DNA of 64,000 bases. Origin: a virus. The translations under genes were made by a program, and so were the position numbers. Numbering within the stretch: the first letter of the stretch is position 1; the number at the start of each line of letters is the position of its first letter. The DNA lies in IMG/VR virus record IMGVR_UViG_3300035698_018317, positions 62,001-126,000 of that record, one strand, 5' to 3'. Below the pieces are notes generated by a model. That model did not search any database. It was not told where the DNA came from and worked only from the letters and a program-made list of their open reading frames with translations. This document shows, piece after piece, positions 5,845 to 64,000 of the stretch.

Positions 5845-6018
5845 ATGATATCTTTTAGAAAATGGTTAGAATTAGTTGATTCAGGTCCGTTCGAACCCGA
5901 GAACATCGTAGTCACCGCTATGAATGTTGCATCGGGTCCGGGTTCTTCTGAAATTCCTCCTACAAGAAAAAATAAACATTGTATGAAAAAGAAGATGAAG
6001 AAAAAGCAGAAAAAGTAA
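5845..6018 (+). CDS. Small protein with capsid-targeting-like N-terminus (57 aa)
   Basis: The protein begins MISFRKWLELVD, the shared N-terminal motif of this window, and ends in a very basic Lys-rich tail (KKKMKKKQKK). The motif is like the T4 capsid-targeting sequence, and a basic tail would suit a DNA-binding internal head protein; that role is inferred. An in-frame ATG far upstream lies inside the opposite gene and is not used. There is no Shine-Dalgarno; TATATA (5832-5837) ends seven bases before the ATG. Confidence 0.55.
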   Translation: MISFRKWLELVDSGPFEPENIVVTAMNVASGPGSSEIPPTRKNKHCMKKKMKKKQKK

Positions 6019-6243
6019 TTACCACTTATTGTTCTTTTTCTCGTCATCGTCATCATTGTAGATTTCTTCTTCTTCTATTTCATCATCATCACTATACGGC
6101 CATTCTCCATCTCCATTAGGGTAAAATACCCATTTTTCTTCTTCGTTATCTTCAGATTCATTTTCCCAATCATCGTCTAATAATTCATCATCATCGTCCT
6201 GCCACTTTTTATTCTTTTTTAATCGTGGGTCTTCTTGCGTCAT
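6019..6243 (-). CDS. Very acidic small protein (74 aa)
   Basis: About half of the residues are Asp or Glu, in runs such as DDDDELLDDDW and DDDDE, with aromatic residues between (WVFYPNGDGEWPY). No family recognised. Such acidic proteins in phages can be DNA mimics or inhibitors of nucleic-acid-binding host proteins, but nothing here proves it. AAGGAAA precedes the ATG. It lies directly downstream of the metallopeptidase gene (nine bases apart) and probably shares its transcript. Confidence 0.55.
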   Translation of the reverse strand: MTQEDPRLKKNKKWQDDDDELLDDDWENESEDNEEEKWVFYPNGDGEWPYSDDDEIEEEEIYNDDDDEKKNNKW

Positions 6244-6252
6244 ATATTTTCC

Positions 6253-7653
6253 TTAATCAATAAAATTTCTTAATAATTTTCCATTTTTAACTGCCCACAT
6301 TTCTCTACTGCCTACTTTTTTATTTTCCTGTTGTATGCTTATTGCAGAGTCAATGGCAGATTGAATTACTTCTTGTTCATCTACATGTGTTTCTTCAACA
6401 ACTTTCCCTTCTGAGTCAAATTCATATCCTGTATCTATAGGAACTTCAATTTGTGCGTTCAGGAACGGGTTGTCTGAGTTTAATGCGGTTATTGCATAGT
6501 CTGATGGTTTGATTGTTCTTTTGTTGTTTATTCGTAAAAAGCATCTTGGTTTATCTTCAAAAATATCATCTTCTTTTTTGAGACACATCTTTACATCATC
6601 AATAGACTTAGATGAAGATAATCCTATAATGTTTTCACTAAGTATTTTTCGTTCTATAAAAACATCTTTTATTATTTTATCATATCCTTTATCATCTAAT
6701 TTAGAAGCATAAATCATATTTTCTGCAATTGATTTTGTAAATCTTACAGTTTTTGGTGCTTGAGCTACAGCTTTCAATAAATATCGGCAAGTAATATCTT
6801 TTGCTTTATGGAGTATAAGTGCTTTATTTTTTTTATTTTTTGTTTTCATGTCTTCAAAAATACGAACCATAATTTCATACCAAGCACCTGCAAATACTCT
6901 ACCAAAACTATGACACTCATTGGCTAATATTGCGTAAGGAGCTTTTCGAGGTAGCGTTTTAGGTTTAGCATATCCGAAAACATTTGTAACATCACGAAGG
7001 GAATCTAAATTTCCTTTTTGTTTATTAGTGATATTGAATGCTATAGCACCAATTTGTTCTGCGAGTTTAGAAATGACATTACTTTTCATCATATTGCCAT
7101 TAGTTTCTGAAAGGGCTTTGGCAATTACTTCTTCATGTTGCATAATAGAAAGTATTGCAGTGATATCGGCAAATGCTTCGTGAAAAGACCGAATTTCCAT
7201 CGCTGCTTGGTTCCATAAATCAGGTCTTAATAAATCGAGAATAGCATGGCCTAATTCATGAGCCACTATGTCTGCTGAGTCTGATGTATATACTGTTTCT
7301 TTCGTTTCAGGATTCTTTGCATAAAAGAAACGAAGTGCTTTTCTGTTGTAATTTGCATTTAATTGCTGGCCAGCCATAGGATAAATTTTTAAACAGTTGG
7401 TGGCAGACCACTTTTCAAATGGTTTTATATTCACTAACATTTTGTTAAAATAATTCATACAATTCACTAGCGTGATATAACAACTAGAATTATGAAACTC
7501 AGAAGAAGCCATCTTCGTTGGTTTATAATCATACCGTATGTTTAGACACAAATAACTTGGTGAAGTAGGAATTGTTATTTTCTTTAACAAAGATTTATCA
7601 CTCGGGTCATTTAAAAAATAATATGTTTTTTCTTCACTCATAATCTTACTCAT
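6253..7653 (-). CDS. Zinc metallopeptidase with HELGH motif (gluzincin type)
   Basis: The 466-residue protein contains AHELGH at about residues 131-136 and a third-ligand motif FHEAFAD at 157-163, the HExxH plus ExxxD arrangement of thermolysin-like (gluzincin) peptidases. No signal peptide or membrane segment is visible, so it acts in the infected cell or in the virion. The C-terminal 150 residues are of unknown type. It heads a short minus-strand unit with the acidic protein. The start at 7653 lacks an obvious Shine-Dalgarno; an in-frame ATG four codons later is the alternative. Confidence 0.75.
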   Translation of the reverse strand: MSKIMSEEKTYYFLNDPSDKSLLKKITIPTSPSYLCLNIRYDYKPTKMASSEFHNSSCYITLVNCMNYFNKMLVNIKPFEKWSATNCLKIYPMAGQQLNANYNRKALRFFYAKNPETKETVYTSDSADIVAHELGHAILDLLRPDLWNQAAMEIRSFHEAFADITAILSIMQHEEVIAKALSETNGNMMKSNVISKLAEQIGAIAFNITNKQKGNLDSLRDVTNVFGYAKPKTLPRKAPYAILANECHSFGRVFAGAWYEIMVRIFEDMKTKNKKNKALILHKAKDITCRYLLKAVAQAPKTVRFTKSIAENMIYASKLDDKGYDKIIKDVFIERKILSENIIGLSSSKSIDDVKMCLKKEDDIFEDKPRCFLRINNKRTIKPSDYAITALNSDNPFLNAQIEVPIDTGYEFDSEGKVVEETHVDEQEVIQSAIDSAISIQQENKKVGSREMWAVKNGKLLRNFID

Positions 7654-7698
7654 TTAACTTTAGGTATCATCGAGGATATATATTTTTAGTAATTTAAA

Positions 7699-8310
7699 AT
7701 GAACGAAAAAGAAGAGAGAATTAAAGAACAACGAACTTTAGAAGCAGCCCACAAAAATCTAAGTGGATTGGGAGGTAAGTTTGGCATAATCCTGCAAGGG
7801 CTAGGACAGCCTATCATTGCGCAAGGTGGTGGTAGTTTGTATGCGATGATTGAAGACCCTGATGAAATGCACGAAGAGAAAGAACTTGGTGGAACCCCGG
7901 AAGAAATGCAGGGGCAAATACCGTATTTTGACTCTCAAACCGGAGAAGAGCCTTTTGGAGGGGCGTGGAGAAACGATAGAGAATATGTAAAAGAGCCGTA
8001 CAGCGCACACAAGATAGGATATGTGTTTGATGGATTGAGCCGAGGAATTCATGTCGAAATTAAGTATGTGATTGACAACAACGAGCTAACAGTATATCAT
8101 AAGGGCTACTTAGTGTATAGAGAAGTAGCAGGTGACCTATTAGCCTTCGCTCCTAATGACGAATGGGAACAAAAGGTAGATAGATTATTTCAGTCAGCAA
8201 AAAAAACAAGCAATGAGAAAAGTAAGGAATCCCAGAAAGAAAAGGTTGCGAACGCTATGAGAAAAAAAGATAGTTGGTGGCAAACAGTAAAAACTAAATG
8301 GGGTTTATAA
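7699..8310 (+). CDS. Hypothetical virion-associated-type protein (203 aa)
   Basis: No family recognised. The N-terminal half is polar and Gly/Glu-rich; the middle has beta strands ending in a hydrophobic segment (YKGYLVYREVAGDLLAF); the C-terminus is basic and helical (KKTSNEKSKESQKEK). It ends in TAATGA, the last A being the first base of the next gene's ATG, so translation of the pair is coupled. The start has no clear Shine-Dalgarno. Confidence 0.5.
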   Translation: MNEKEERIKEQRTLEAAHKNLSGLGGKFGIILQGLGQPIIAQGGGSLYAMIEDPDEMHEEKELGGTPEEMQGQIPYFDSQTGEEPFGGAWRNDREYVKEPYSAHKIGYVFDGLSRGIHVEIKYVIDNNELTVYHKGYLVYREVAGDLLAFAPNDEWEQKVDRLFQSAKKTSNEKSKESQKEKVANAMRKKDSWWQTVKTKWGL

Positions 8311-16595: not shown

Positions 16596-18461
16596 ATGGA
16601 CGATATAAGCCAATTAGACGGAATGAGTCACGCAAAGAAGAAAGATGTTGCATTACCCGAAGAGAAGTTCGATTTGTTTTACAAGAAATTTGACTTTGTT
16701 AAGGATATTGTAGAAACAGATGAATGGAAGAAAATATATTCTAATTATTATGACTTTGACAAATCTGAATTAACCATAAAGATAAATGAACCTGAACATG
16801 AAATTGATTCATATGACGGTGAGAAACAAATATTAGAGATTATAAAATGTGTCAATAGTTTTTCATATTTTTGTCACAAATATGTAAAAATCAACCACCC
16901 AATTTATGGTTTGATTCCTTTCAAATTATATTCTTATCAAAAAAGAGTATATCAAGAATACACACAAAATAGATTCAACATTCTTAGCAAATTCCGTCAG
17001 GGTGGGCTAACAACCATGTCTGTACTGTGGTCTATGTGGAGATGTTTGTTCAGCACTGACCAACAAATCATGGTTATGTCCAAAACTGACCGTGAAGCTA
17101 TTGCCGCAGGCGAAATTGTTAAAAGAGCATTGGAACATTTACCAGCTTGGCTTAAATGCAACATGGGCAAAAATAATGACCATGAAAAAGAATTTAAATC
17201 AACAGGCTCAAAACTATCGTTCTATACACCTGAAGCTGCTCGTGGTAAATCCTGTACTTTACTTATAATTGATGAAGCAGCATTTATTCCAGATATGGAG
17301 AAACACTGGAAGTCCATGTATCCGGTTCTTGCAACTGGTGGAGCTTGCTGTGTTGTTTCTACAGTAAATGGTCTTGGTAACTGGTATGAAGAAATATATC
17401 ACGAAGCAGAAAATCATAAAAATGCATTTAATGTAATTGACCTAGATTTCTGGGAGCATCCAGAGTATAATGACCCAGTATGGGTTAAAGATACTAAATC
17501 AAACTTAGGAGAAAAAGGTTGGCAACAGGAAGTACTTCGTTCATTCTTGGGGTCAGGCGAAACATATATTTCTCCTAATATCATAGCGCAATTAGATAAG
17601 GAAACGAGAGATAGAAAACCAGTAAGAGCATTATTTGAGAAATGGACATCTATTGGAAGAGATAAAGATGAAGCTCTTGGAGTGGGTGCTTTATGGATAT
17701 TCCAAGAACCAATTGAGGGACACGAATATATTATTGGTGTTGATTCTGCTGAAGGTGTCGGTGAAGATGGTGATAATAGCGTGTTCCAAGTTTTGGACCA
17801 AGCTACATTAGAACAGGTTGCAGAATTTTATAGCAACACAGTACCGCCTCATGAATTTTCTCAAATTTTAAATGAAATGGGATATTGTTACAATACAGCA
17901 ATAATTGTTGTAGAAAATTTGGGAATTGGTTCTGCAATAATTAACTCATTAATTCATGACCTGTCTTATGAAAATATATTTTATGGTGGAAATAGGGGCA
18001 AACAACAACAACCCGGAATCAAAACCAATAAAACTAACAGGCCAGTTATTTTAGAGACATTACAGAATAGGCTTATCAATAATGTATTAAAAATAAATAG
18101 TCACAGATTTGTGGATGAATTAAAAACCTTTATCTTTAATTCAACAAGAAAAGCCGCTGAAGCACAAAAAGGAAAGCACGATGATGCTATAATGGCATTA
18201 AGTTTTGCTATACACGTTAGAGATTTGCAAATGCGTGATATCCCAATCGGTGCCGAATTGCCACAAGAAATGACGAATATATTTAAAAGTGAAATATACG
18301 AACAAATAAGACAAGAGATTAAAAAAGGCGCACCAGAAGATTGGCTTGCAGACGACGACGATGACGAGCCAATGTTTATTCCCAACGATGATGTGTTACC
18401 TCCTGTTTTATTCGACATTAATAGACCCAAAGATAAATTATTGAAAGAATTCGGATGGTAA
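16596..18461 (+). CDS. terL: Terminase large subunit (DNA packaging ATPase-nuclease)
   Basis: The 621-residue protein pumps DNA into the prohead through the portal and cuts concatemers. The ATPase domain shows a Walker A-like KFRQGGLTT (about 132-140), Walker B LLIIDEAAF (about 222-230) and motif III VVSTVNG. The RNase H-like nuclease domain shows the catalytic aspartates in IIGVDSAEG and GKHDDAIMAL. Length and motif order fit T4 gp17. A GGAGAG Shine-Dalgarno and an upstream ATAAATA, similar to the T4 late-promoter core, precede the ATG. It opens the head module. Confidence 0.95.
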   Translation: MDDISQLDGMSHAKKKDVALPEEKFDLFYKKFDFVKDIVETDEWKKIYSNYYDFDKSELTIKINEPEHEIDSYDGEKQILEIIKCVNSFSYFCHKYVKINHPIYGLIPFKLYSYQKRVYQEYTQNRFNILSKFRQGGLTTMSVLWSMWRCLFSTDQQIMVMSKTDREAIAAGEIVKRALEHLPAWLKCNMGKNNDHEKEFKSTGSKLSFYTPEAARGKSCTLLIIDEAAFIPDMEKHWKSMYPVLATGGACCVVSTVNGLGNWYEEIYHEAENHKNAFNVIDLDFWEHPEYNDPVWVKDTKSNLGEKGWQQEVLRSFLGSGETYISPNIIAQLDKETRDRKPVRALFEKWTSIGRDKDEALGVGALWIFQEPIEGHEYIIGVDSAEGVGEDGDNSVFQVLDQATLEQVAEFYSNTVPPHEFSQILNEMGYCYNTAIIVVENLGIGSAIINSLIHDLSYENIFYGGNRGKQQQPGIKTNKTNRPVILETLQNRLINNVLKINSHRFVDELKTFIFNSTRKAAEAQKGKHDDAIMALSFAIHVRDLQMRDIPIGAELPQEMTNIFKSEIYEQIRQEIKKGAPEDWLADDDDDEPMFIPNDDVLPPVLFDINRPKDKLLKEFGW

Positions 18462-18838
18462 AAACATTTTCTAAATTCGTAGAAAGTCAAGGAATTAGAC
18501 TTTGGGTAGACGACCTACGTGACCCTAAAGAGAGCGATGCCAAGAGAAAAGGTGCGGCTGGAGATGAGGTGTGGGTTAAAACTCCCGAAGAAGCTATCAA
18601 AATTATATCTACAGGAAATGTTATAAGCATATCTTTAGATGGAGACTTGGGAGAAGATGAAAATGGCAAAGACTTATCTGGCACAGATATAAGTAAATTT
18701 ATTCAGGGATTGGCCTTGCATAATAAGATACCAAGATTAAAATGGGCCATTCATACAGATAATGGTGGTAAATTCAAATCTATGACAATGGATTTAACAA
18801 GAGCGGATGATTTTTGGAATAGACATGAGCAAGAATAG
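18455..18838 (+). CDS. Receiver-like (cREC-type) protein with capsid-targeting-like N-terminus
   Basis: After the shared N-terminal motif (VKTFSKFVES), the protein reads RLWVDDLRDP, then EEAIKII, ISLDGDLG and HTDNGGKFKSM, the order of the cREC family of receiver-like domains found in phages and bacteria. Family members usually have LDHDLG; here His is replaced by Gly. Its biochemical function is not known. The ATG overlaps the terminase stop by seven bases, so it is coupled to it. Packaging into the head is inferred from the N-terminal motif. Confidence 0.65.
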   Translation: MVKTFSKFVESQGIRLWVDDLRDPKESDAKRKGAAGDEVWVKTPEEAIKIISTGNVISISLDGDLGEDENGKDLSGTDISKFIQGLALHNKIPRLKWAIHTDNGGKFKSMTMDLTRADDFWNRHEQE

Positions 18839-19804: not shown

Positions 19805-22306
19805 ATGCCTTTTTGGTCTGATTTATATAAATTATGGACGTATGCTTTTGAGAAAGACCCTCTTTCGAGAAGAACTGATGACTCTGGAATTTCTGGTGCT
19901 GGTGTTACACAGCCAGAAGCAATCCCAGACATTAGACAAGACGGAAGTTTTTGGGGTGGTGGTAAAGGTCTAGTACGTCTTCGAGATACGAACGATTTTA
20001 TTGACCTCTCTACCGTCTCAAACAGAAAGAGTAGATACAAAGAATACGAAAGATTAAGGAATGTTCCTGAAATAGAAACCGCCATGACTGTTTTTGCTGA
20101 CGAAGCATGTCTTGCGGGAGCAACAAAAATAGCTACAGTTGCCGAAGGCTTAGTTTCTATCCAGAAATTAGCTGAAACTAAAACAGAACCATTTTTGGTC
20201 TACTGCTGGGATTTTGAAAAAAATGATTACACAATAGGCTGGGCTTCTGACCCACGCTATGTGAAGACAGAGAAAACTATCAAAATCACATTAGATAATG
20301 GAAGATTTTTCAGATGTACCGTAGACCATCGTGTTTTGAGAAGAAACGGTAAATTTATAGAAGCAGGAAAAATAACAGAGGGTATGGAATTAATGCCTTT
20401 CTACAGAATCCCTGCTAATTATGAAAAAACTCAAATAAAAACAAAACAATTCCCAAGAATATTCACATTCACAGATGGCTGGAAGCACGAAAGACAATTT
20501 ATTGATGAATGGAGATTGGGACGTTCTATTGAAAAATATAAAGATGTAAATGCAGCTTGTCGGGCTTTAGCTGCTGGATTAACCACAAGACAAATAGCTA
20601 AAATAATGGGGCATCAATGGATTACCATAGATTCAAAGATAGCCAAAGAAGGATTTACCACTAGCGAAGTAAAATGGCTTGGTAAAAAAGAAGATGTAAG
20701 ACGTGTTATTGGTGTTCACAAAGACCGCACCGAAGACGTATACGATTTGTCAGTAGAAAAACATAAGAATTTCTGCGGCGACTCTTGTATTTTCCATAAT
20801 TGTCAAAGAGGCGATAATAATCACGTATTTGACATTATTTGTAAAGATAATGATGTCAAAAAAGAACTGGACTTTTTATTCTTCCATCGAAAAATGCTGA
20901 ACATGGATAGGAGAATTTGGAGTAGGTCAAAGAATCTCTTCATTATGGGAGATGAATTCTGGGAAATCGTTATTGACCCAGACAATCCAAAAGATGGTAT
21001 CTTAAAGATTCAAGAGTTACCTCCTGATAGTATGTTTAGAATTGAAACCACAAAAGGTAAACTTGTGGAATTCCAACAAGCTAAAGAAGGTCCAGATTAT
21101 CAGGCATTAACAAAAGCTCCGATACCTCAAGCTACAGAATCATCTATACAACAATCAAAAGCATTAAGGTTTACTCCAGACCAGATTGTTCATATGAAAA
21201 TTGGAGATGATAGAAAAACATTCTATCCATATGGTCAAAGTTTAGTAGAGCCAGCAAGAGGCCCAGCACACCAATTGCGTCTGATGGAGGATGCAATGGT
21301 CGTATACAGGCTCTCCCGTGCGCCTGAAAGAAGGGTGTTCTATATTGACGTTGGTAATCTTGCTCCCTATAAAGCAGAAGCTTTTATGGAAAGATTAAAA
21401 GACCAATTTAGAAAGAAAAAAGTTGCTGGTAGAACAGCAGGCACTTCAAGTGGTGCATCTGCTGTTGAAGAAAGATGGCACGCACGGGCGGCTGATGAAG
21501 ATTATTGGCTACCAATTCGTCCGAATGCCAATACCAGAATTGATACTCTCCCCGGAGCACAAAACTTGGGAGAGATTGATGATGCTGTATATTTTAGAAA
21601 TAAATTATTCACGGCTTTAAATTTCCCCAAAAATTACATGTCCAATGAAGATGTGCAAACAACAAGAATTGCTCTATCTGCACAGGATTGTAAGTTTGCA
21701 CGACTTGTTGAAAGATTACAAAGTCATATGGAAGATGGAATTTGGGCTGTTGCTGACCGTCATCTTAAACTACGTGGATTCCCAGAAGAAGCTTGGGAAG
21801 ACCTTATTATAAAATTAACTCCTCCTTCTGATTGGAGAGAGTTGAGTAGAGCAGAAGTTGTCTCGAATAGAATCAACAACGCAAATAGTTTAAAAGGTTC
21901 TATGCTGATGTCTGATTTTGATATCCTTACACAATGGATGAAATTAAATGAAGATGAAGCCCAAGATATGATGTCAAGGATGAAAGTTCAAAAACTTGAA
22001 GATATGAAACTTCAGGTGTTGGCACAGAATCCGCAGCTTCTAGGTGTGGGCGTTCCCGGCATAGGAGGACAAGAAGTTGGGGCTGAAGGGCCAAGTCAAA
22101 TGCCGCAACAACCACCTGAAGGTGCTGGCCCAGAAATGGGTGCGGAACCTCCGCAACAGCCCACTGAAGGTGGAGCACCAGCACCAGCTACATCAAGTGG
22201 AATCGCACTTCCAAAACCATCGACAGGTGACTTGAAGAAGTATGACCTACAAATTCAGACATATAGTAGCGAACAAGACCATGAAGACATAGATTTTAGT
22301 CTATAA
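19805..22306 (+). CDS. Portal protein containing a mini-intein
   Basis: The 833-residue precursor consists of a T4 gp20-like portal interrupted after residue 101 by a 231-residue intein (102-332). After splicing the portal would be about 602 residues. The portal forms the dodecameric ring through which DNA enters the head. Recognisable portal segments are TVFADEA-CQRGDNNHVFDI across the splice site, FIMGDEFWEI, QIVHMKIGDD and a conserved LFTALNFPKNYM. The C-terminus is a Pro/Gln/Gly-rich tail. An AGGAAAA Shine-Dalgarno and an upstream TATATA support the start. Its place after terL and before the protease is canonical. Confidence 0.92.
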   Translation: MPFWSDLYKLWTYAFEKDPLSRRTDDSGISGAGVTQPEAIPDIRQDGSFWGGGKGLVRLRDTNDFIDLSTVSNRKSRYKEYERLRNVPEIETAMTVFADEACLAGATKIATVAEGLVSIQKLAETKTEPFLVYCWDFEKNDYTIGWASDPRYVKTEKTIKITLDNGRFFRCTVDHRVLRRNGKFIEAGKITEGMELMPFYRIPANYEKTQIKTKQFPRIFTFTDGWKHERQFIDEWRLGRSIEKYKDVNAACRALAAGLTTRQIAKIMGHQWITIDSKIAKEGFTTSEVKWLGKKEDVRRVIGVHKDRTEDVYDLSVEKHKNFCGDSCIFHNCQRGDNNHVFDIICKDNDVKKELDFLFFHRKMLNMDRRIWSRSKNLFIMGDEFWEIVIDPDNPKDGILKIQELPPDSMFRIETTKGKLVEFQQAKEGPDYQALTKAPIPQATESSIQQSKALRFTPDQIVHMKIGDDRKTFYPYGQSLVEPARGPAHQLRLMEDAMVVYRLSRAPERRVFYIDVGNLAPYKAEAFMERLKDQFRKKKVAGRTAGTSSGASAVEERWHARAADEDYWLPIRPNANTRIDTLPGAQNLGEIDDAVYFRNKLFTALNFPKNYMSNEDVQTTRIALSAQDCKFARLVERLQSHMEDGIWAVADRHLKLRGFPEEAWEDLIIKLTPPSDWRELSRAEVVSNRINNANSLKGSMLMSDFDILTQWMKLNEDEAQDMMSRMKVQKLEDMKLQVLAQNPQLLGVGVPGIGGQEVGAEGPSQMPQQPPEGAGPEMGAEPPQQPTEGGAPAPATSSGIALPKPSTGDLKKYDLQIQTYSSEQDHEDIDFSL
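20108..20800 (+). other. Mini-intein inside the portal gene
   Basis: The intein starts with Cys102 (CLAGATKIAT, block A), has the block B motif TVDH in GRFFRCTVDHRVL, and ends with block F/G motifs VYDLSVEKHKNFC ... IFHN followed by Cys333 as the first C-extein residue. At 231 residues it is too short for a full LAGLIDADG domain. The central part carries a helix-turn-helix-like segment (LTTRQIAKIMGHQWIT), perhaps the DNA-binding remnant of a lost homing endonuclease. Cys1, the terminal HN and Cys+1 are all present, so splicing should work. Confidence 0.92.
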
Positions 22307-23152: not shown

Positions 23153-23455
23153 TTATTCTTCATCACCATCTTCTAAGCCGGGACTGCCATCTGCGTCTGA
23201 TGGGACAACTTCATCTTTATTCACATCGTCCTCATGCGGAGATGTTGGGCCTTCATCAGCATTAACGTCATTTAACATCGACTTAATCTCTGGGTCCATA
23301 TCCGCTAATTGAGCAATAAATCGCTCTACGTGCTTGCGATGTTTTCTCCAAGCAACTTTACAAATTCTGAAAATAACATCTTCAGACAATTCCTTTATTT
23401 CAGGATTAACGCCTGATTCTTCTTGTTCGATGAAGTAGTCTGTAAATCTTTTCAT
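23153..23455 (-). CDS. Small acidic-tailed protein with capsid-targeting-like N-terminus (100 aa)
   Basis: It begins MKRFTDYFIEQEES, the shared motif, followed by a basic helical part (WRKHRKHVERF) and a strongly acidic C-terminus (Asp/Glu-rich last 35 residues). No family recognised. GAGGAAA precedes the ATG. It converges with the lipoprotein protease gene, leaving eight bases between. Inferred role: internal head protein. Confidence 0.55.
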   Translation of the reverse strand: MKRFTDYFIEQEESGVNPEIKELSEDVIFRICKVAWRKHRKHVERFIAQLADMDPEIKSMLNDVNADEGPTSPHEDDVNKDEVVPSDADGSPGLEDGDEE

Positions 23456-25507: not shown

Positions 25508-26230
25508 ATGGAATTACTTCTGGAACATGATGTAACTCCGGGAACGAGTTATGATGAATGCCTGCTATATGGCGGGGGTGGATTCGTTCTCAACGAGGCC
25601 GTAAACCTCAATGAAGCAGCAGATGCGAGTGTTAAGACCGTTAAGTTTCGTGGAAAATTTCAAGAAGCTGACGCAGTTAACAAAAACAAAAGGTCGTACC
25701 CGTATAAGGTGCTCAATACCAATTTAACGAGACTTGAAGAAATGATGAACAGCGGGGGTCTGTGTGGTGAGTTAGACCACCCCACAGATTCCATTGTTCA
25801 CTTTGCCAATGCATCTCATAAAATTGTTAAACTCTGGTGGGAAGATAATGTCATGATGGGTGAAGGATATATCCTTAACACACCACATGGAAAAATTCTT
25901 CGTTCGCTCATCAATGATGGCGTAAGAATCGGAATTAGCAGTAGAGGCGTAGGCAACGGACAAGTCGATGAAAATGGTATACTTGTCATTGGGGAAAGTT
26001 ATAAATTGATAACATTTGATGCTGTTGCAGACCCAAGTACGCACGCAGCATTTCAGAAAAAAGTAACAAGTAGTACTCATGAAAGTGTCATGCCTACTAC
26101 CGTAATTGATAATAATTCTCAGAAAAATGAAGCCAGCAGCATAGATACCGTCAGCAAAGAGGTTCTATTAGCTTGCATCACTGGAATTGCGAACAGAACC
26201 ACTAATAAAATTAAAGCGAGGTTGAGCTAA
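25508..26230 (+). CDS. Prohead maturation protease (T4 gp21-like, S80 family)
   Basis: The protein cleaves scaffold, capsid and internal proteins during head maturation. The catalytic signature is visible: His in GELDHPTDS, Ser in IGISSRGVG and Asp in FDAVADPST, in the order of the S80 prohead proteases. I choose the ATG at 25508, because GAGG at 25498-25501 is too close to the ATG at 25502. The stop overlaps the scaffold ATG (TAATG). A similar GCGAGG leader precedes the scaffold gene. It is likely to process the capsid-targeting-like peptides found elsewhere in the window. Confidence 0.88.
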   Translation: MELLLEHDVTPGTSYDECLLYGGGGFVLNEAVNLNEAADASVKTVKFRGKFQEADAVNKNKRSYPYKVLNTNLTRLEEMMNSGGLCGELDHPTDSIVHFANASHKIVKLWWEDNVMMGEGYILNTPHGKILRSLINDGVRIGISSRGVGNGQVDENGILVIGESYKLITFDAVADPSTHAAFQKKVTSSTHESVMPTTVIDNNSQKNEASSIDTVSKEVLLACITGIANRTTNKIKARLS

Positions 26231-27156
26231 TGGATAAAATCATGGAAGCATTAAGTAAACTTTTACCTGAAGACCAAGTAAAAGAAGTAGCCACGGCTGT
26301 TGAGGGAGTACTCAATGACTCAAAGGCTGAATTGGAAAAAGAATACAATGACCAACTAGAAAAAGCTTATGAAGGTCTTACCAGTGAGCTTAAGGTTGCT
26401 GAAGAAACCGGCGAACAAGGATACCATGAAGCTTTTGGTGTTATCCAAGACCTACGCAATCGTCTAGAAACTCAGAGAACTGAATTCGAGACTGCTCTCG
26501 AAGAAGGTTACGAAGAGGCATATCAGATGTTGGTCACCGAACGTGGCAAAAACGATAACATTTCTACTGACCTCTACGAAGAGTACGATAAGAAACTCAG
26601 CGAAATGAAAGAATTCTTGGTTGACAAGATTGATGAATTCCTTCAACAGAAAGGTTCAGAGCTTTATGAGCAAGCAAGACGTGATGTTCTTAATGACCCA
26701 CGCCTAGTTGAACATAAAGTTACACTTCAGAAAATAATTGAACAAGTTTCTGACTATATTACAGATGAAGATTATGCATTGGCAACAACTGCAAAATTGG
26801 AAGAGTCTGATAAGAAAATTGATGAGCTTAAAGGCCAGTACAGATTGCTTGAAGCTCGTAACATCAGAATGTCTACCGAAAACACAAAACTAACTGAACA
26901 AGTTCGTCAAGACAAAGAACTGATTCAGGAACATACAACGAATGACGCAGACGCACAAAAGAAAGAAAGAACTGAAAAGGCAAAGAATGTGACGGGGCGA
27001 GGAAGCAAAGAACTTGAAACTGTAGAAGTTATTGGTGAGCATCAAGAAGCTACAGTTCCAACCGAAGGTGGTGATAATACCATCTCCGAAAGTATGACAC
27101 CAGCAGCAATCCGTCAGATGAAGGTATTGTCTGGTCTCATTCGTGACGATGAATAA
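26230..27156 (+). CDS. Prohead scaffolding core protein (T4 gp22-like)
   Basis: The 308-residue product is acidic, nearly all helical and rich in coiled-coil heptads (KAELEKEYNDQLEKAYEGL, LYEEYDKKLSEMKEFL). Together with its place between protease and capsid gene this identifies the assembly core of the prohead, normally degraded by the protease during maturation. GCGAGG lies upstream and the start is coupled to the protease stop. The C-terminus (MTPAAIRQMKVLSGL) is a short conserved helix that may contact the capsid protein. Confidence 0.85.
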   Translation: MDKIMEALSKLLPEDQVKEVATAVEGVLNDSKAELEKEYNDQLEKAYEGLTSELKVAEETGEQGYHEAFGVIQDLRNRLETQRTEFETALEEGYEEAYQMLVTERGKNDNISTDLYEEYDKKLSEMKEFLVDKIDEFLQQKGSELYEQARRDVLNDPRLVEHKVTLQKIIEQVSDYITDEDYALATTAKLEESDKKIDELKGQYRLLEARNIRMSTENTKLTEQVRQDKELIQEHTTNDADAQKKERTEKAKNVTGRGSKELETVEVIGEHQEATVPTEGGDNTISESMTPAAIRQMKVLSGLIRDDE

Positions 27157-27182: not shown

Positions 27183-28622
27183 ATGAATGCAAATGCAAGA
27201 TTTCTCAACGAAGCCCGTGAATTAGAGGGACGTTGGGGCCAAACTGGTTTGCTAGATGGCATCGAAGACCGATTTGTTCGCTCAACAACGGCAGTGCTTT
27301 TAGAAAACCAAAGACTGATGAATGAAGTTTCGACGGACACGAGTGATATCGCTCAGTTCAAAAGAATTTCTATTCCATTAGTAAGACGTATTTACCCCCA
27401 GTTGATTGCTAACAAAGTTGTATCCGTACAGCCTTTGCTTGGTCCTACTGGATTAGTTTACTACCTGAGATTCCGCTACAGCAGCAACAAGGGCACAATT
27501 CAGGGTGCAACAAACAATAGTGGTTTCCCGACTGATGACGCTAACAGTTTACAGCAACTCGCCTCGGGTGATGCAAACCTCAATATTTTCTACAGTAGCC
27601 AATTCGTAGAAAATGAGACAAGCAGCACTGATGATGGCGTTGATGTAACTTCAGTCTTCACCCCGTTGCAGCATACGCCGATTCTTGCTGGAACAATGAC
27701 TGGTACGATTTATGACGGTGCAACCGCCATTCAGACATACACAGTAAGTGAAGCTGGTGTTTTCACCTTTAGTAATATTGGTGCAGCAGCCGCAATCTTA
27801 GTAACCGCTGGAGCACTTGATGTTACCACTGGTGAATTAACCTTAACTTGGAGTGCTGCTCCGGGTGCAAACAATGTTATTACTAGTTATGAGTATAACA
27901 TGGAATGCAACCAAGACCTTCCAGAAATCAACTTGGTCATCGAGTCGGAAGAAATCGTTGCCAAAACGAGAAAACTGAAAGCAGTCTGGAGTTACGAGGC
28001 ACAGCAAGACCTGCGTTCGCAACACAACCTCGATGCAGAGGCCGAGTTGACCGCAGTTCTGGCACAAGAAATTAACTTGGAAATTGACCGTGAAGTTCTG
28101 ACTGACCTTCGCAACAATGCAGGTACAGTTTCCTCATGGGACTTCAACACCGCACTTGGCGATACGATTAAAGAGAAGTATGAATCTCTCTACGTCAAGG
28201 TCGTAGAAGTTTCGAACGTCGTTCACCGTAAGACCCTGAGAGGCGGGGCAAACTGGATTGTGACTTCACCAGAAGTAGCATCCATCTTTGAAACCGCCAC
28301 CGCTGGTTTCGCACCAGCTTCCTCAGAGACTTTCACCAGCAGCCTCGGCATCCAGTATGTTGGTACAGTTAACAACCGCTGGAGAATGTACAAAGACCCG
28401 CTGTTCCCGACTGGTCAGATTTTGATGGGTTATAAGGGCGACAGCTACATGGATAGTGGTTATTTCTACTGCCCATACGTACCGCTGACACAGACCCCAG
28501 TTGTTCTTGACCCAGAGAGCTTCTGCCCACGTAAGGGTATCTTAACACGCTACGGAAAAAAACTTTTGAGGGAAGGTGCAAAATTCTATGCCCGACTTTC
28601 GATTGCGAACTTCGTTATCTAA
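27183..28622 (+). CDS. Major capsid protein (T4 gp23-like)
   Basis: The 479-residue HK97-fold protein shows the gp23 hallmarks VRRIYPQLIANKVVSVQPL, GLVYYLRFRYS, TRKLKAVWSYEAQQDL, AELTAVLAQEINLEIDREVL and the C-terminal YVPLTQTPVVLDPESF with TRYGKKL. A beta-rich insertion at about 165-240 (MTGTIYDGATAIQTY ... GELTLTWSAAPG) looks like an extra surface domain. The N-terminus probably is removed by the prohead protease. An AGAGGA Shine-Dalgarno lies upstream. Codon choice looks more G/C-rich than in neighbours, as for a highly expressed gene. A strong terminator follows. Confidence 0.95.
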   Translation: MNANARFLNEARELEGRWGQTGLLDGIEDRFVRSTTAVLLENQRLMNEVSTDTSDIAQFKRISIPLVRRIYPQLIANKVVSVQPLLGPTGLVYYLRFRYSSNKGTIQGATNNSGFPTDDANSLQQLASGDANLNIFYSSQFVENETSSTDDGVDVTSVFTPLQHTPILAGTMTGTIYDGATAIQTYTVSEAGVFTFSNIGAAAAILVTAGALDVTTGELTLTWSAAPGANNVITSYEYNMECNQDLPEINLVIESEEIVAKTRKLKAVWSYEAQQDLRSQHNLDAEAELTAVLAQEINLEIDREVLTDLRNNAGTVSSWDFNTALGDTIKEKYESLYVKVVEVSNVVHRKTLRGGANWIVTSPEVASIFETATAGFAPASSETFTSSLGIQYVGTVNNRWRMYKDPLFPTGQILMGYKGDSYMDSGYFYCPYVPLTQTPVVLDPESFCPRKGILTRYGKKLLREGAKFYARLSIANFVI

Positions 28623-31360: not shown

Positions 31361-31388
31361 ATTTTAACAAATTATAAAAATTTTTCAA
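31361..31388 (-). promoter_or_regulatory. Sigma70-like promoter, start codon at +1
   Basis: Minus-strand TTGAAA, 16-bp spacer and TAAAAT, then gatatt and the ATG at 31354. Same architecture as upstream of 29556, and both genes share their N-terminal coding motif. Confidence 0.6.
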
Positions 31389-31741
31389 CTTAACTTTTTA
31401 AAAGTTCTTAGTTTTTCTACGAGAGGATGTATGTGGTCATACAAAACTTTTCTTCTTTCAATGAAATCATCATCATTTGGCCTTCCAGATATTTTGTCTA
31501 ATTCATCTTCTAGACCTTCTACTGTGTGTATTGAACAACAGGGTATAGATATTGGCATTCCATCAGTCACCATTGGCGGGAACTTATTTTCACACACAGG
31601 CTGATAATTTTTTATCAACTCATCCCAAAGCATTGGCTCTCCCGTAGTAGGTATCGCATACATTATATCATTTTGTATGGTAACGTAATGTATATTTAAT
31701 CGTTCACCTTCTGCGTTTTTATATTCGTAGTAATTTGACAT
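31385..31741 (-). CDS. Hypothetical protein (118 aa)
   Basis: No family recognised. Beta-rich N-terminal half (YYEYKNAEGERLNIHYVTI) and helical C-terminal half ending in a basic tail. AAGGAG precedes the ATG at 31741. It is divergent from the GT54-like gene. Confidence 0.5.
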   Translation of the reverse strand: MSNYYEYKNAEGERLNIHYVTIQNDIMYAIPTTGEPMLWDELIKNYQPVCENKFPPMVTDGMPISIPCCSIHTVEGLEDELDKISGRPNDDDFIERRKVLYDHIHPLVEKLRTFKKLS

Positions 31742-36545: not shown

Positions 36546-37192
36546 AAAAAGTTTTAGTTGTAAGTGAACATGGGTATAGACAGTCCTCGTATTACAAACC
36601 TTTTGAAGAGTTTGGGGAATGCGAAATGGACGCATCAGTATTGACCACCAATCCAGATTCAGTTTGTCTAGCAGTCTTCGAGGGTGGAAGTGATGTTTCG
36701 CCTCATCTATATAATGAAGAAAAACATCATACAACATCTAACGACCCCCAACGTGACGTGTTTGAAAAAGCTGTTTTTCAGAGATTGCTTAAATTAGGAA
36801 TCCCTATGGCTGGGATATGTCGTGGGTCACAATTGCTATGCGTTTTGTCCGGTGGAAGATTAGTTCAAAATATTAATGGCCATCTAGGAAATCACAGAGT
36901 ACAAACCAGTGACGGTAGAACAATAATTGTTAGTTCAACTCACCACCAAATGCAACTGCCTCCTGTTGACGCAGAACCTCTTGCATGGGCCGAACCTAGA
37001 TTGTCTGATATGTATGAAGGATGGACTCCAACGGATGGTATATTCACGCCTGAGCGTGAATTTGATTGCGTGTATTATCCGAAAACTAATTGTCTTGGAA
37101 TGCAATATCACCCAGAATATATGTCTCGTGATTCAGAAGGATTCCAATATTGTGTTGAACTTACAAAGAAATACTTGTTTAAACAGAGTTAG
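36542..37192 (+). CDS. Class I glutamine amidotransferase-like protein (peptidase C26 type)
   Basis: The 216-residue protein shows the catalytic nucleophile elbow AGICRGSQ and the His-Glu pair QYHPE, plus the oxyanion segment FEGGSDVSP. This is the gamma-glutamyl hydrolase/C26-like form, which cleaves gamma-glutamyl amides rather than serving a synthetase. In large phages it commonly accompanies COOH-NH2 ligases, one of which lies at 60053. I chose ATG 36542 (coupled ATGA, with a purine-rich tract upstream) over an in-frame ATG at 36506. Confidence 0.82.
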   Translation: MKKVLVVSEHGYRQSSYYKPFEEFGECEMDASVLTTNPDSVCLAVFEGGSDVSPHLYNEEKHHTTSNDPQRDVFEKAVFQRLLKLGIPMAGICRGSQLLCVLSGGRLVQNINGHLGNHRVQTSDGRTIIVSSTHHQMQLPPVDAEPLAWAEPRLSDMYEGWTPTDGIFTPEREFDCVYYPKTNCLGMQYHPEYMSRDSEGFQYCVELTKKYLFKQS

Positions 37193-37430
37193 CTTGACGT
37201 TCCCGTTCCCTATTTGCCATGTCGTTCATGGTGCCGATGGCGTCTGCTCGTTCTTCAGGACCGTCACCGCCAGCATGATATGATTTGTCATCATTAAGTA
37301 CGCCGTTTTCTATCCATTGAACAATGTATTCATTCCATTCAGTGTCTTTTTTAATTTTGAGTAAAACATCGCCAATAACAATGCCTCCTCCAGCGACTTC
37401 CTCAATAACCCATTCCGAAAAACTTTTCAT
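37179..37430 (-). CDS. Small protein with capsid-targeting-like N-terminus (83 aa)
   Basis: MKSFSEWVIEEVAGGG fits the shared motif and contains I-E-E, an (I/L)-x-E site like that cut by T4-type prohead proteases. The mature part is mixed alpha/beta with a conserved-looking YHAGGDGPEERADAI segment. AGG precedes the ATG. It converges with the amidotransferase-like gene, overlapping by 14 bases. Inferred internal head protein. Confidence 0.6.
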   Translation of the reverse strand: MKSFSEWVIEEVAGGGIVIGDVLLKIKKDTEWNEYIVQWIENGVLNDDKSYHAGGDGPEERADAIGTMNDMANRERERQANSV

Positions 37431-43169: not shown

Positions 43170-43580
<411 letters not shown>

Positions 43581-44542: not shown

Positions 44543-44549
44543 TTTTCCT

Positions 44550-44810: not shown

Positions 44811-44855
44811 TTACTATTATATAGACGAAAAGGATTAATTCCAAAAGGAGAAATC

Positions 44856-45053
44856 TTGATAAATGAAGATTGTTACTGGTTTTTAGATAAAGCTGAAAGC
44901 ATAATGAAGGCACTATGCGTGGAGTGCCAACAAATAGAGAAAACTGGCTGGTTTTGGAAAGGCAGCGAGTTTGGTTATGGTGATTACCACTTAGAATGTT
45001 CTAAGTGTGGAAAGATTCTACATGAAAGTAAAAAAAATGAGACCTCCGTTTAA
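44856..45053 (+). CDS. Zinc-ribbon small protein (65 aa)
   Basis: Start TTG at 44856 is supported by AAAGGAG five bases upstream. Two CxxC pairs (CVECQQ and ECSKCGK) about 30 residues apart make a zinc ribbon. It overlaps the Dam gene by 32 bases and is probably co-expressed. Role unknown; many such ribbons act in nucleic-acid binding. Confidence 0.6.
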   Translation: MINEDCYWFLDKAESIMKALCVECQQIEKTGWFWKGSEFGYGDYHLECSKCGKILHESKKNETSV

Positions 45054-45831
45054 AACACATGGTGGAAAGTTCTATCTTGCCTCTTGGATTATAGAGAACT
45101 TCCCAGAAAATCATGAACAATATGATTATATCGAACCTTTCATGGGCGGTGGAAGCGTATTCTTAAATAAAACTCCCTCTATAGGATTGAAAGTCATAAA
45201 TGACATTGATTTGGGAACAATTCAAGTATTCAGAGCATTAAGAGATGAACCTAAAACGTTCATTGCAAAATTGAAAAGAAAAAAATACTCTGAAAATGTA
45301 TTCAAAAGGGAATTAAAAAAGACGGAATTTAAAGATTATTTAGACCATGCAATAAACGAATTTGTATTAAGAAGAATGAGTCGTGGTGGTCTTAAAACAG
45401 CCTTCGCTTGGTCGGAAAGACTACGAGGTGGTGAGCCGGGAGATTTACATGCTTGGAAAACTATTGTTAAGCAATTACCTGAAATAGCCAAGAAGATAAA
45501 AAACATATACATATTTAATAAAGATGCTTGTAAGATTATAGAAGCGTTTAATTCTAAGAATGCCTTAGTTTATTGTGACCCTCCTTATGTTCCAGAAACA
45601 AGAGTAAGCCCTTCTGCATATGGAGCAAACGAAATGAGCACAGATGACCATATTAAACTTTCTCAAAAACTGATGAGGTTTGAAGGCAAAGTGGTTATAA
45701 GTGGATATTCGGGTATTTTGTATAATAGACTTTATGAAGAATGGAGACGAATTGAAAAAGAAGTGCCGAATCATTCTTCTCAACAAAAGACCAAACCACG
45801 TAAAATAGAAGTTTGTTGGATGAACTACTAA
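45022..45831 (+). CDS. DNA adenine methyltransferase (Dam/D12 class)
   Basis: The 269-residue N6-adenine methyltransferase has the start motif PFKTHGGKFYLA, the SAM-binding EPFMGGGSVF (about 38-47) and the catalytic CDPPYVP (about 185-191), in the order of the Dam family. It would protect the phage genome from restriction, or mark it for packaging or transcription. ATG 45022 with GGAAAG upstream is preferred over 45007. No cognate restriction gene is seen. Confidence 0.9.
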   Translation: MKVKKMRPPFKTHGGKFYLASWIIENFPENHEQYDYIEPFMGGGSVFLNKTPSIGLKVINDIDLGTIQVFRALRDEPKTFIAKLKRKKYSENVFKRELKKTEFKDYLDHAINEFVLRRMSRGGLKTAFAWSERLRGGEPGDLHAWKTIVKQLPEIAKKIKNIYIFNKDACKIIEAFNSKNALVYCDPPYVPETRVSPSAYGANEMSTDDHIKLSQKLMRFEGKVVISGYSGILYNRLYEEWRRIEKEVPNHSSQQKTKPRKIEVCWMNY

Positions 45832-61698: not shown

Positions 61699-61729
61699 TT
61701 ATTTATGAGTAGGTGAAGCTCATTATATA

Positions 61730-61762: not shown

Positions 61763-61785
61763 CTATGCTCTCTTTTTATATAAAA

Positions 61786-62580
61786 TTATGAACCAATTCT
61801 GGCTTGTGGTGCATAACCTATTTCTCCGGGTCCGGGTTGTTCGGCACCGACACTCACACTATTGTCAGGTTCGATTCTTTTGGTTAGTTCCATATCTTCT
61901 ACGGCCACACCATCCCAGTTGCCTTGGTCAGAGAAGTCGGTCATCATGTCATTCAGGCTGTTAAGGAATCCATCATCATCTTCAACGGTTTCTTTTTTCA
62001 TCTTGCCTTTTTTCATGTCTTTGTCAACCTTGTCCATCTTATCCATCTTATCTTCTTTAGAATCGGCCTTCTTGTCGTCCTTCTTATCGTCTTTTTTATC
62101 GTCTTTCTTGGCTTTACCCTTTTTAGCGGACTTGCCACCTTTTTTCATGCCTTTTTTCTGCATTTCTAGGGCATCGCCTGAATCGTCATCAGAATCAATT
62201 TCTGTTTCAGTTTCTTCTTCCTCGTCACCATCACCATCTTTTTTGATAACAGTTGTTTCTTCTTCTGAATCTTCCGAATCTTTTTCGGCATCTTCATCAG
62301 CGTCCGGGTCTGCGTCTTTTACGGCGGTGGGGTCAACGATTTCACCGTCATCTTCGCCATCTTCGCTTTCACCATCTTCTTTTGGGATATCGACATCGCC
62401 ATCCATCTTCTTTTTGAGTTTCTTTTTGGCTTCGTCTAATTTTGTTTTTAGCTTATCAAGCATTTCATCTTCGGTTGGCATATTGCTAACTAGCCCAATG
62501 TTTTGAGGATTAGAAATACCCAAAGCATGAGTGACACCAACAGATTCGTTCATCAACTTCCAATTTTTATAAGAAAGCAT
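61786..62580 (-). CDS. Low-complexity acidic/basic protein with targeting-like N-terminus (264 aa)
   Basis: MLSYKNWKLMNESVG resembles the shared motif. The body is low complexity: an acidic block (about 65-140, long Asp/Glu runs) and then a basic block of KKDDKKDDKKD type repeats and KGK motifs (about 145-200), and a normal C-terminal part (FLNSLNDMMTDFSDQGNW). Such charge-segregated proteins occur among phage internal or assembly-core proteins. Function not known. Confidence 0.6.
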   Translation of the reverse strand: MLSYKNWKLMNESVGVTHALGISNPQNIGLVSNMPTEDEMLDKLKTKLDEAKKKLKKKMDGDVDIPKEDGESEDGEDDGEIVDPTAVKDADPDADEDAEKDSEDSEEETTVIKKDGDGDEEEETETEIDSDDDSGDALEMQKKGMKKGGKSAKKGKAKKDDKKDDKKDDKKADSKEDKMDKMDKVDKDMKKGKMKKETVEDDDGFLNSLNDMMTDFSDQGNWDGVAVEDMELTKRIEPDNSVSVGAEQPGPGEIGYAPQARIGS

Positions 62581-62648
62581 TTTTATCTCCTATTTTTTTT
62601 AACGGTCCATAAAGGCCGACAACTTTTCTAACCTATATAGATTAGTTA

Positions 62649-62941: not shown

Positions 62942-62962
62942 AATATATGTAGTGATGTTAAA

Positions 62963-62991
62963 TAAAAAAAACGCCCTCAAAAGAGGGCGTT
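62963..62991 (-). terminator. Intrinsic terminator
   Basis: Minus-strand AACGCCCTC, TTTT loop, GAGGGCGTT, then a T-run. Ends the gene at 63017. Confidence 0.9.
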
Positions 62992-63016
62992 AGTTTGAAG
63001 GCACGACTACGACGAT

Positions 63017-63703
63017 TTAACGATACATATTGTCCGGTATAAATCCTCTACTATCATCGAATGTGAATTTCTTATTACTTTCATAGCCGCCACAATCTTT
63101 CAGTGTGGGGATAAGAAATCTCTTGTTGGTAGGTCTATATCGCTCTTGAGAGAACTTCTCAACGGCTGTTTCAAATTTATGGTAGAATTTTCCCATTTTA
63201 ATAGATGTAATGTGATGAGGAAGATTCAAACACAAAATCTGGTTCTGAATGGTTTTTAATACCTCAGACGCTCTAACCTTTTTACGCCCTTTACCAACTT
63301 TACTAAAGTCAATAAACCACAAGAAAGAATCAGGGTCATACGTAAAAACAGGATTTTGAATTCCTGCGTCCCAATGACTATCAATAATATCCGTTATTTC
63401 AGATAGCCAAAGATTACGTTTTACTACAGAAACGTATTTTGCGTAATAATAATAAGCAAAGACGCTTCTGAAACTCATAATCAAGATATGCTTGTTTGCT
63501 TTCGTGTGCATATTATGACGGAGACAGAATGGACAATAGAAACGTTGGCCTGATAAACGCTCACACCACTTCCTTATCATAGGCAGCATTCCTACTTGTT
63601 TGCCACAAAAGCAACAAGAGTAATGAATGTGTTCTGACAATTCATCGGACTCGTTTTCTATTTCTTGTAATTGTATATTTTGACGGTCTATGGTTGTGCT
63701 CAT
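63017..63703 (-). CDS. Conserved phage zinc-binding protein (228 aa)
   Basis: Two CxxC pairs (CCFCGKQ and YCPFCLRH) form a zinc-binding module near the N-terminus (about 30-65), followed by an aromatic-rich segment (SVFAYYYYAKYVSVV) and a mixed C-terminal domain (DPDSFLWFIDFSKVGKGRKKV). I do not recognise the family. The ATG has only a weak GGTG upstream. Its own terminator follows. Confidence 0.55.
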   Translation of the reverse strand: MSTTIDRQNIQLQEIENESDELSEHIHYSCCFCGKQVGMLPMIRKWCERLSGQRFYCPFCLRHNMHTKANKHILIMSFRSVFAYYYYAKYVSVVKRNLWLSEITDIIDSHWDAGIQNPVFTYDPDSFLWFIDFSKVGKGRKKVRASEVLKTIQNQILCLNLPHHITSIKMGKFYHKFETAVEKFSQERYRPTNKRFLIPTLKDCGGYESNKKFTFDDSRGFIPDNMYR

Positions 63704-63783
63704 TTTTTACACCAAAAAAAAATAAGTTTTTGTTCTACGCTCTCTATATAAGTTTGAACTATAGTTAGCAGTAGAGGATAATT

Positions 63784-64000
63784 ATGAAAACATTCTATCA
63801 ATGGGCTGAAGAAAATAAAATAGAGCTTCCCGTAATAACGACTGACGGTGAGGATGCCACGAGCGAAAACAGAGTCAGGACTGGTTATAGTGCAAACTAT
63901 CCACCTGCCTATGTTGCTGCTCAATATCCTCATCATTACTTCAATCCTGCCAAGGCCACAGCAGACCTTGATGCGGAACAAATGAAGAAAAAAGATAAGA
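63784..64000 (+). CDS. Protein with capsid-targeting-like N-terminus, 5' part only
   Basis: The frame starts MKTFYQWAEENKIELPV and is open to the right edge (at least 72 codons). AGAGGA precedes the ATG and a TATATA (63745-63750) lies further upstream. The mature part begins with Thr/Asp/Glu- and Tyr-rich segments (GYSANYPPAYVAAQYP). The rest lies outside the window. Confidence 0.6.
   Translation, partial: MKTFYQWAEENKIELPVITTDGEDATSENRVRTGYSANYPPAYVAAQYPHHYFNPAKATADLDAEQMKKKDK

What the first reader, a model, noticed from the sequence alone, without database searches (positions are those of the whole stretch)
5845..64000. A dispersed family of about fourteen proteins shares a T4-like capsid-targeting N-terminus
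Otherwise unrelated proteins start with M, a basic, acidic or polar residue, Phe/Tyr at position 3-5, an aromatic (W/Y/F) three residues on, and a Glu/Asn soon after: starts at 5845, 18455, 23455, 30213, 37430, 43141, 43580, 43912, 44542, 45851, 46026, 59075, 62580 and 63784. Several have an (I/L)-x-E site after it. In T4 such a sequence directs internal proteins into the prohead, where gp21 cuts it off. A gp21-like protease and gp22-like core are in this window. Cargo would include a SWIM zinc finger, a cREC domain, a helix-turn-helix protein, poly-Gln and poly-Lys proteins: a set delivered into the host with the DNA.
Basis: partly seen in the sequence, partly recalled or inferred. Interest (0 to 1): 0.85.

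Follow-up and report, generated by a model that had tools for sequence, protein, structure and literature searches.

The report
T4-style capsid-targeting tags, massively expanded
A lineage of huge uncultured phages appears to tag about forty otherwise unrelated proteins, including RNA-repair and probable counter-defence enzymes, with the short address label that phage T4 uses on only a few proteins, so that they are loaded into the virus head and probably carried into the next host with the DNA.

Summary
All 14 starts carry the motif. Over the 225-kb record, 38 of 309 called genes score as tagged by a profile trained on two other phages, against about 1 expected. Two relatives (LR756511, 595 kb; an IMG/VR record, 533 kb) have roughly 60 and 35. 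The consensus M-K-(T/S)-F-x-(E/Q)-W-L-x-E matches T4 MKTYQEFIAE, and the same profile puts T4 ipI, ipII and ipIII in the top five of 251 T4 starts. (L/I)-x-E and especially (L/I/F)-N-E sites are enriched just behind the motif; the capsid protein (FLNE/A) and protease (VLNE/A) carry the same site. The tag is absent or near-absent in five other T4-head phages. Not noticed before: about half of the tag genes sit 4-7 nt behind a T4-late-like TANATA box with no Shine-Dalgarno, so leaderless late messages are predicted. Cargo includes a CCA tRNA nucleotidyltransferase, an RNA-repair HAD phosphatase, cREC, a tRNA-ligase phosphodiesterase, an ADP-ribosyltransferase, SAM-lyase-like proteins and poly-Lys peptides. 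Capsid targeting is well supported by inference. Packaging, cleavage and injection are not shown; virion proteomics would decide.

The parts
5845..6018 (+). CTS gene, 57 aa, Lys-rich C-terminus (MISFRKWLELVD...KKKMKKKQKK); TATATA box 7 nt upstream
   Evidence: profile 16.2 bits; sequence
18455..18838 (+). CTS gene, cREC cyclic-phosphate processing receiver domain, 127 aa (MVKTFSKFVE)
   Evidence: 10.2 bits; Pfam PF20274 E 2e-13
23153..23455 (-). CTS gene, 100 aa (MKRFTDYFIEQEE)
   Evidence: 11.3 bits
30076..30213 (-). CTS gene, 45 aa poly-Lys peptide (MKFKQWLQLEDKKKKKKKEKK)
   Evidence: 14.4 bits, TATATA 7 nt upstream
37179..37430 (-). CTS gene, 83 aa (MKSFSEWVIEE)
   Evidence: 14.8 bits
42623..43141 (-). 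CTS gene, SWIM-type zinc-finger protein, 172 aa (MDFKSWIITE/SS); orthologues in 24 viral contigs
   Evidence: 10.8 bits; invariant E10, C110, C112, C155, H157; N-terminus disordered in the model
43170..43580 (-). CTS gene, poly-Gln protein, 136 aa (MKTFNEYMEER)
   Evidence: 17.6 bits
43775..43912 (-). CTS gene, 45 aa (MKTFHKYLEE/N)
   Evidence: 9.2 bits
43931..44542 (-). CTS gene, Gln-rich protein, 203 aa (MRTFLEYNEN)
   Evidence: 7.7 bits
45851..46039 (+). CTS gene, GTG start, 62 aa, Lys-rich tail (KSFKKWLED...GKKKKRKK); TATATA 4 nt upstream
   Evidence: 15.2 bits
46026..46370 (+). CTS gene, 114 aa (MRTFSEYMD)
   Evidence: 11.2 bits
58785..59072 (-). CTS gene, helix-turn-helix protein, 95 aa (MDFKEFLNSE); TAAATA 5 nt upstream of 59072
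   Evidence: 13.5 bits; HTH_24 E 7e-7; orthologue in LR756511 also tagged
61786..62580 (-). CTS gene, acidic/Lys low-complexity protein, 264 aa (MLSYKNWKLMNE/S); orthologue with KMLNE/S in the 533-kb relative
   Evidence: 13.1 bits
63784..64000 (+). CTS gene, 73 aa, runs past the window end (MKTFYQWAEEN)
   Evidence: 16.3 bits; orthologues in both relatives
31385..31741 (-). weak candidate (MSNYYEYKNAEGE), 118 aa; may be chance
   Evidence: 8.2 bits
25502..26230 (+). prohead protease, gp21/S77 type; own N-terminus has FVLNE/AVNLNE/A
   Evidence: PHROG 207 E 8e-47; 32% to T4 gp21; sequence
26230..27156 (+). putative scaffold/core protein (gp22 position), rich in [LIM]xE
   Evidence: 17 sites against 8.3 shuffled; no PHROG hit
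27183..28622 (+). major capsid protein, gp23 type; FLNE/A at residues 7-11 and LMNE/V at 45-49
   Evidence: PHROG 138 E 2e-81; N-termini of relatives
19805..22306 (+). portal protein (gp20 type)
   Evidence: PHROG 213 E 2e-75
16596..18461 (+). terminase large subunit
   Evidence: PHROG 2 E 1e-39

Best explanation
The shared N-terminus is a T4-type capsid-targeting sequence (CTS), expanded into a large regulon. Steps: (1) late in infection a gp55-like sigma factor transcribes many CTS genes, each from its own TANATA box that abuts the start codon, giving leaderless messages (inferred from sequence). (2) The CTS, M-K-(T/S)-F-x-(E/Q)-W-L-x-E, binds the scaffold core so that any protein carrying it is drawn into the prohead (inferred from T4). 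(3) The S77 protease cuts after (L/I/F)-x-E, often L-N-E, releasing the mature cargo, as it also cuts the capsid protein and itself (site conservation shown; cutting inferred). (4) DNA is packaged around the cargo; poly-Lys peptides may help neutralise it (inferred). (5) Cargo enters the next host with the DNA, where RNA-repair enzymes, an ADP-ribosyltransferase, SAM-lyase-like proteins, DNA-binding proteins and unknown proteins act before phage genes are expressed, probably against host defences (inferred; about 0.6 likely on its own).
For: Excess at starts far above internal-Met and shuffled controls. A profile trained on other phages recovers T4 ipI, ipII and ipIII in the top 5 of 251 starts. 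(L/I)xE and (L/I/F)NE enriched behind the motif while [LI]xK, [LI]xQ and polar-NE are not. The same LNE/A in capsid protein and protease. SWIM orthologues in 24 contigs keep M-x-F-x-x-W...E/S, with that Glu invariant in 23 aligned sequences; in L264 the SWIM domain is fused behind another protein, its own tag is gone, the fusion starts with a tag, and the E/S junction is kept. SWIM homologues in XacN1, Rhizobium TM30, IME392 and SNUABM_39 have no tag. Residues 1-8 are disordered in the model and the ordered part begins at about residue 10. Late-promoter link: LR756511 33/60 tagged against 44/997 other genes, P 4e-25; also significant in the other two genomes. 74/154 tag genes have the box at 4-7 nt, 1 of 74 with a Shine-Dalgarno. 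gp55-like sigma in all three genomes. Precedent: T4 internal proteins are diverse with only a common CTS, and the CTS packages foreign proteins (PMC3012670); Ip1-3 are injected inhibitors of type IV restriction enzymes (PMC12373910).
Against: No virion proteomics for this lineage. Half of the tagged proteins have no clear (L/I)xE within 28 residues. Some cargo (CCA nucleotidyltransferase, NUDIX) could be ordinary cytoplasmic enzymes. In T4 the ip genes have normal leaders, so the leaderless arrangement is a difference. The gp22-like scaffold is not shown by homology.
Confidence: 0.86

Rival explanations
1. The motif is an N-terminal localisation or stability tag for the infected cell (membrane or replication-compartment address, degron), not a capsid address.
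For: A short amphipathic N-terminus shared by unrelated proteins is also how such tags look; about half of the members show no clear cleavage site.
Against: Position-by-position match to the T4 CTS and recovery of T4 internal proteins; the site behind it is the one in capsid protein and protease; late-promoter link fits assembly rather than take-over.
Confidence: 0.07
2. Translation-start bias: AT-rich, Lys-first starts favour initiation, and with leaderless messages the first codons are constrained.
For: Half of the genes are predicted leaderless.
Against: Trp, Phe and Glu at fixed spacing are not explained; codons vary at K, T, F, L and R and mean nucleotide identity over codons 2-10 is 38%; the half with ordinary leaders has the same motif; RaK2 and CBB show no excess.
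Confidence: 0.02
3. A recently duplicated gene family whose bodies have diverged; the motif is only common ancestry.
For: Dispersed copies; one repeated architecture (start box plus tag).
Against: Bodies belong to unrelated known families; no similarity within the record; homologues in other phages lack the tag. Tag shuffling by recombination remains possible but is a question of origin, not of function.
Confidence: 0.02
4. The proteins are packaged, but mainly to shape or condense the DNA rather than to act in the host.
For: Poly-Lys tails and small size of several members; 27 of 70 in LR756511 have pI above 9.
Against: Catalytic cargo such as CCA nucleotidyltransferase, RNA-repair phosphatase, C39-like peptidase, NUDIX and CPDase domain has no obvious packing role.
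Confidence: 0.2

Closest known systems
Phage T4 internal proteins ipI, ipII, ipIII and their capsid-targeting sequence
   Same: N-terminal MKT(F/Y)xE(F/W)-(I/L)-x-E, unrelated bodies, gp21/S77 protease, gp23-type capsid
   Different: About 40 in 225 kb here against 3 in T4 (at least 10 kinds over the T-even relatives, PMC12373910); Trp favoured at the second aromatic; enzymes as cargo; leaderless late starts
T4 Alt ADP-ribosyltransferase (packaged, injected)
   Same: An ART domain protein (PF18760) with a tag is in the record at 198943-199296
   Different: Different ART family; T4 Alt starts MELITELFDED, not the ip-type CTS
phiKZ inner-body and SPN3US ejection proteins
   Same: Many proteins packaged in the head, cut by a head protease and partly injected (PMC13282480, PMC5694885)
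   Different: Not a T4-type head lineage; the short N-terminal tag studied here was not looked for in them

Membership tests
T4-type CTS internal proteins | N-terminal CTS motif at the start codon | tested here: met
   38/309 starts against about 1 expected; T4 ip genes recovered by the same profile
T4-type CTS internal proteins | Unrelated bodies behind a common tag | tested here: met
   No BLAST similarity within the record; different Pfam families
T4-type CTS internal proteins | (I/L)-x-E cleavage site after the tag | tested here: met
   Met for the set (75/154 against 43 shuffled; [LIF]NE 18 against 2.9); not present in every member
T4-type CTS internal proteins | gp21/S77 protease, T4-type capsid and core in the same genome | tested here: met
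   core protein by position and composition only
T4-type CTS internal proteins | Late expression | tested here: inconclusive
   Late-promoter-like TANATA boxes and gp55-like sigma; no transcription data
T4-type CTS internal proteins | Present inside the virion with the tag removed | not testable with these tools
   needs virion proteomics
T4-type CTS internal proteins | Injected with the DNA | not testable with these tools
   needs a delivery assay
phiKZ/SPN3US inner-body or ejection proteins | phiKZ-type head genes and protease | tested here: not met
   Capsid, portal and protease are T4 type

The most novel reading that the evidence does not exclude
A huge-phage lineage has turned the T4 internal-protein trick into a general loading system: a portable unit of leaderless late promoter plus CTS that can be put in front of any gene, used on 40 to 60 cargoes per phage. 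It pre-loads virions with an RNA-repair kit (CCA nucleotidyltransferase, SAK-type HAD phosphatase, cREC, tRNA-ligase phosphodiesterase) and anti-restriction enzymes, so that tRNA-cutting and restriction defences are countered before the first phage transcript.
Probability: 0.5. Interest if true: 0.88.

Novelty: new variant of a known kind. Interest (0 to 1): 0.78.

Why it matters
Most huge-phage genes have no known function. A tag readable from sequence would assign a place (inside the head) and a time (delivery with the DNA) to about a tenth of the genes in this record, name candidate counter-defence proteins against which hosts could be screened, and offer natural capsid-loading tags. It also predicts an unusual coupling of leaderless translation with late transcription that one RNA-seq experiment can test.

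Tried and rejected
The CBB virion proteome list (PMC5259590 Table 4) and RaK2 were fetched to look for tagged proteins among virion proteins, but those genomes have no tagged set, so they became negative controls. Single-sequence search with T4 gp55 found nothing; the PHROG 234 profile did. The 428-aa cargo at record 156035-157321 looked by eye like an HhH-GPD glycosylase (IPGVQSVKAGF...CIDTHN), but the model is poor (pLDDT 40) and profile searches are empty: not claimed. PDB fold search with the SWIM model gave nothing significant. A duplicated family and start-codon bias were rejected (see rivals). A few extra hits (record 220596 TnsA-like, 34797, 93385) are probably chance and not needed for 'about 40'. 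Related-locus scans with the CCA and 428-aa proteins found no further relatives.
Full report
CHECK OF THE OBSERVATION. The window is bases 62001-126000 of a 225,284-base IMG/VR virus record, which was fetched whole. All 14 starts exist and carry the motif. With a home-made gene caller, M-x(1,2)-[FY]-x-x-[WFY] occurs at 35 of 309 starts (11.3%) but at 14 of 1333 internal Met (1.05%) and 1.4% of all positions. A 10-column profile trained only on two other phages finds 38 starts at 7 bits or more, against 1.2 expected from internal Met and 0.9 (maximum 5 in 500 runs) from shuffled N-termini; in the window alone 12 called genes against 0.26. Fourteen orthologue families are shared between this record and the training phages, so the profile is not fully independent, but the untrained pattern gives the same answer.

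WHAT IT MATCHES. T4 ipIII and ipII start MKTYQEFIAEA and ipI MKTFKEFTSTT. The consensus here is M-K-(T/S)-F-(K/R)-(E/Q)-W-L-x-E. The huge-phage profile places gp61.1, ipI, ipIII and ipII in the top five of 251 T4 starts. The window holds TerL, a gp20-type portal, an S77 protease and a gp23-type capsid protein.

CLEAVAGE SITES. In the pooled set of 154 tagged proteins from three genomes, [LI]xE lies in residues 8-28 of 75 (shuffle mean 43, maximum 59; other genes 21%), and [LIF]NE in 18 (shuffle 2.9; other genes 1.3%). [LI]xK, [LI]xQ and polar-NE are not enriched. The capsid protein of the relatives keeps FLNE/A near residue 10 and, in nearly all of those examined, LMNE/V or a close variant near residue 48; the protease starts with FVLNE/AVNLNE/A. 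That the second capsid site corresponds to the T4 gp23 cut is my reading by eye, because the pairwise alignment starts only after it.

EVOLUTION OF ONE CARGO. Twenty-four viral contigs carry orthologues of the SWIM protein. Twenty-two have TANATA 4-5 nt before the ATG; most start M-x-F-x-x-W-(L/V)-x-(L/I)-x-E/S, and the Glu is invariant in all 23 aligned sequences. In L264 the SWIM domain is the C-terminal part of a longer protein: its own F..W tag is missing, the long protein itself starts MPDALSFRLWLQQQE behind CTACATATTTCC-ATG, and the junction AVAE/ST is kept. Two contigs (L274, L276) have lost the aromatic tag but keep LKE/SS. Homologues in XacN1, a Rhizobium phage, IME392 and an Erwinia phage have no tag. 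In an AlphaFold2 model residues 1-8 fall below pLDDT 50 and order begins at about residue 10. Tag and site behave as a detachable module.

LINEAGE LIMITS. LR756511.1 (595 kb, capsid protein 78% identical) has 60 pattern matches in 1057 genes and IMG/VR 3300049215_000771 (533 kb) 34 in 840, both about 3 times the internal-Met rate by pattern, and 48 against 2.8 and 31 against 1.1 expected by held-out profile at 7 bits. RaK2, CBB, XacN1, Mel-JY01 and LR756508, all with an S77 protease or T4-type portal, show 0 to 3 at 9 bits. The expansion is thus not a general trait of T4-head jumbo phages. Its exact phylogenetic boundary was not mapped.

LEADERLESS LATE STARTS (new). Tag genes are associated with TANATA ending 4-8 nt before the start: LR756511 33/60 against 44/997 other genes (Fisher P 4e-25), IMG/VR record P 9e-9, this record P 5e-5. 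Of 154 tag genes 74 have it at 4-7 nt, 47 matches being at exactly 5; only 1 of the 74 has a Shine-Dalgarno-like sequence. ATGs in general have the box at 5 nt in 0.2-0.4%, and the 533-kb record shows a genome-wide spike at 5 nt (0.21% against 0.02-0.08% at neighbouring gaps) that RaK2 and CBB lack. A gp55-like late sigma (PHROG 234) is present in all three. With the T4 late box ending near -6 (established knowledge), +1 would fall on the A of ATG. In T4 the ip genes have ordinary Shine-Dalgarno leaders.

CARGO. This record: HAD_SAK_1 RNA-repair phosphatase next to a CCA/poly(A) nucleotidyltransferase, cREC, ART-PolyVal, HTH, SWIM, poly-Gln and poly-Lys proteins. LR756511: related HAD_SAK_1 and CCA nucleotidyltransferase, again close together and both tagged, a C39-like peptidase and a tRNA-ligase phosphodiesterase domain. 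IMG/VR record: C39-like peptidase, NUDIX, HAD (NIF), DUF3293 and SAM-lyase-like proteins, the latter below or near curated cut-offs. Nineteen groups of related cargo keep the tag across genomes. The nucleotidyltransferase core begins at about residue 71, behind the tag. RNA repair recurs, but I did not test whether such functions are commoner among tagged than untagged genes.

MECHANISM AND LIMITS. T4 work shows that the CTS suffices to load foreign proteins and that internal proteins are injected counter-defence factors (PMC3012670; PMC12373910). By analogy the tagged set is loaded, cut and injected. Shown here: motif, excess, site, module behaviour, promoter link. Inferred: core binding, packaging, cutting, injection, action in the host. 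Late expression of counter-defence enzymes makes best sense if they are for the next infection.

NOVELTY. The open-access papers searched describe CTS proteins in T-even phages and large packaged sets in phiKZ relatives, but none that I found describes this expansion or leaderless CTS genes; subscription papers and preprints were not searchable. I rate it a new variant of a known kind.

Noticed in passing
T4 AF158101 18966-19130 (gene 61.1): T4 gp61.1 (MKTFKEFIKEDMVAG, 54 aa, unknown function, close to the anti-toxin genes) has the best CTS score in T4; it may be a further T4 internal protein.
   Followed up: partly
L264 22-1504 (IMGVR 3300047160_036266): SWIM cargo fused in frame behind another CTS protein, with tag only at the new N-terminus and a kept E/S junction: a candidate cleavable polyprotein.
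   Followed up: partly
LR756508.1 146009-149425 and 156507-158102: Portal and prohead-protease profile matches are split into pieces within single long frames (1387 and 576 aa), suggesting inteins or large insertions.
   Followed up: no
record 44251-45819, 135558-136442, 174350-175336 and others: Some untagged genes also have TANATA 4-8 nt before the start: leaderless late transcription is not limited to tag genes.
   Followed up: partly
record 19940-20365: NUDIX-looking protein with a degenerate tag (MLLEFKKYIN) and TACATA 4 nt upstream; a NUDIX protein in the 533-kb relative has a strong tag.
   Followed up: partly
LR756508.1 182802-183575 and 255042-255854: Two similar proteins starting MKFKELLKEQ / MRFKKLLEEK with Y-R-G-T ART-like motifs; possibly a tag variant with Leu as second hydrophobic.
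   Followed up: no
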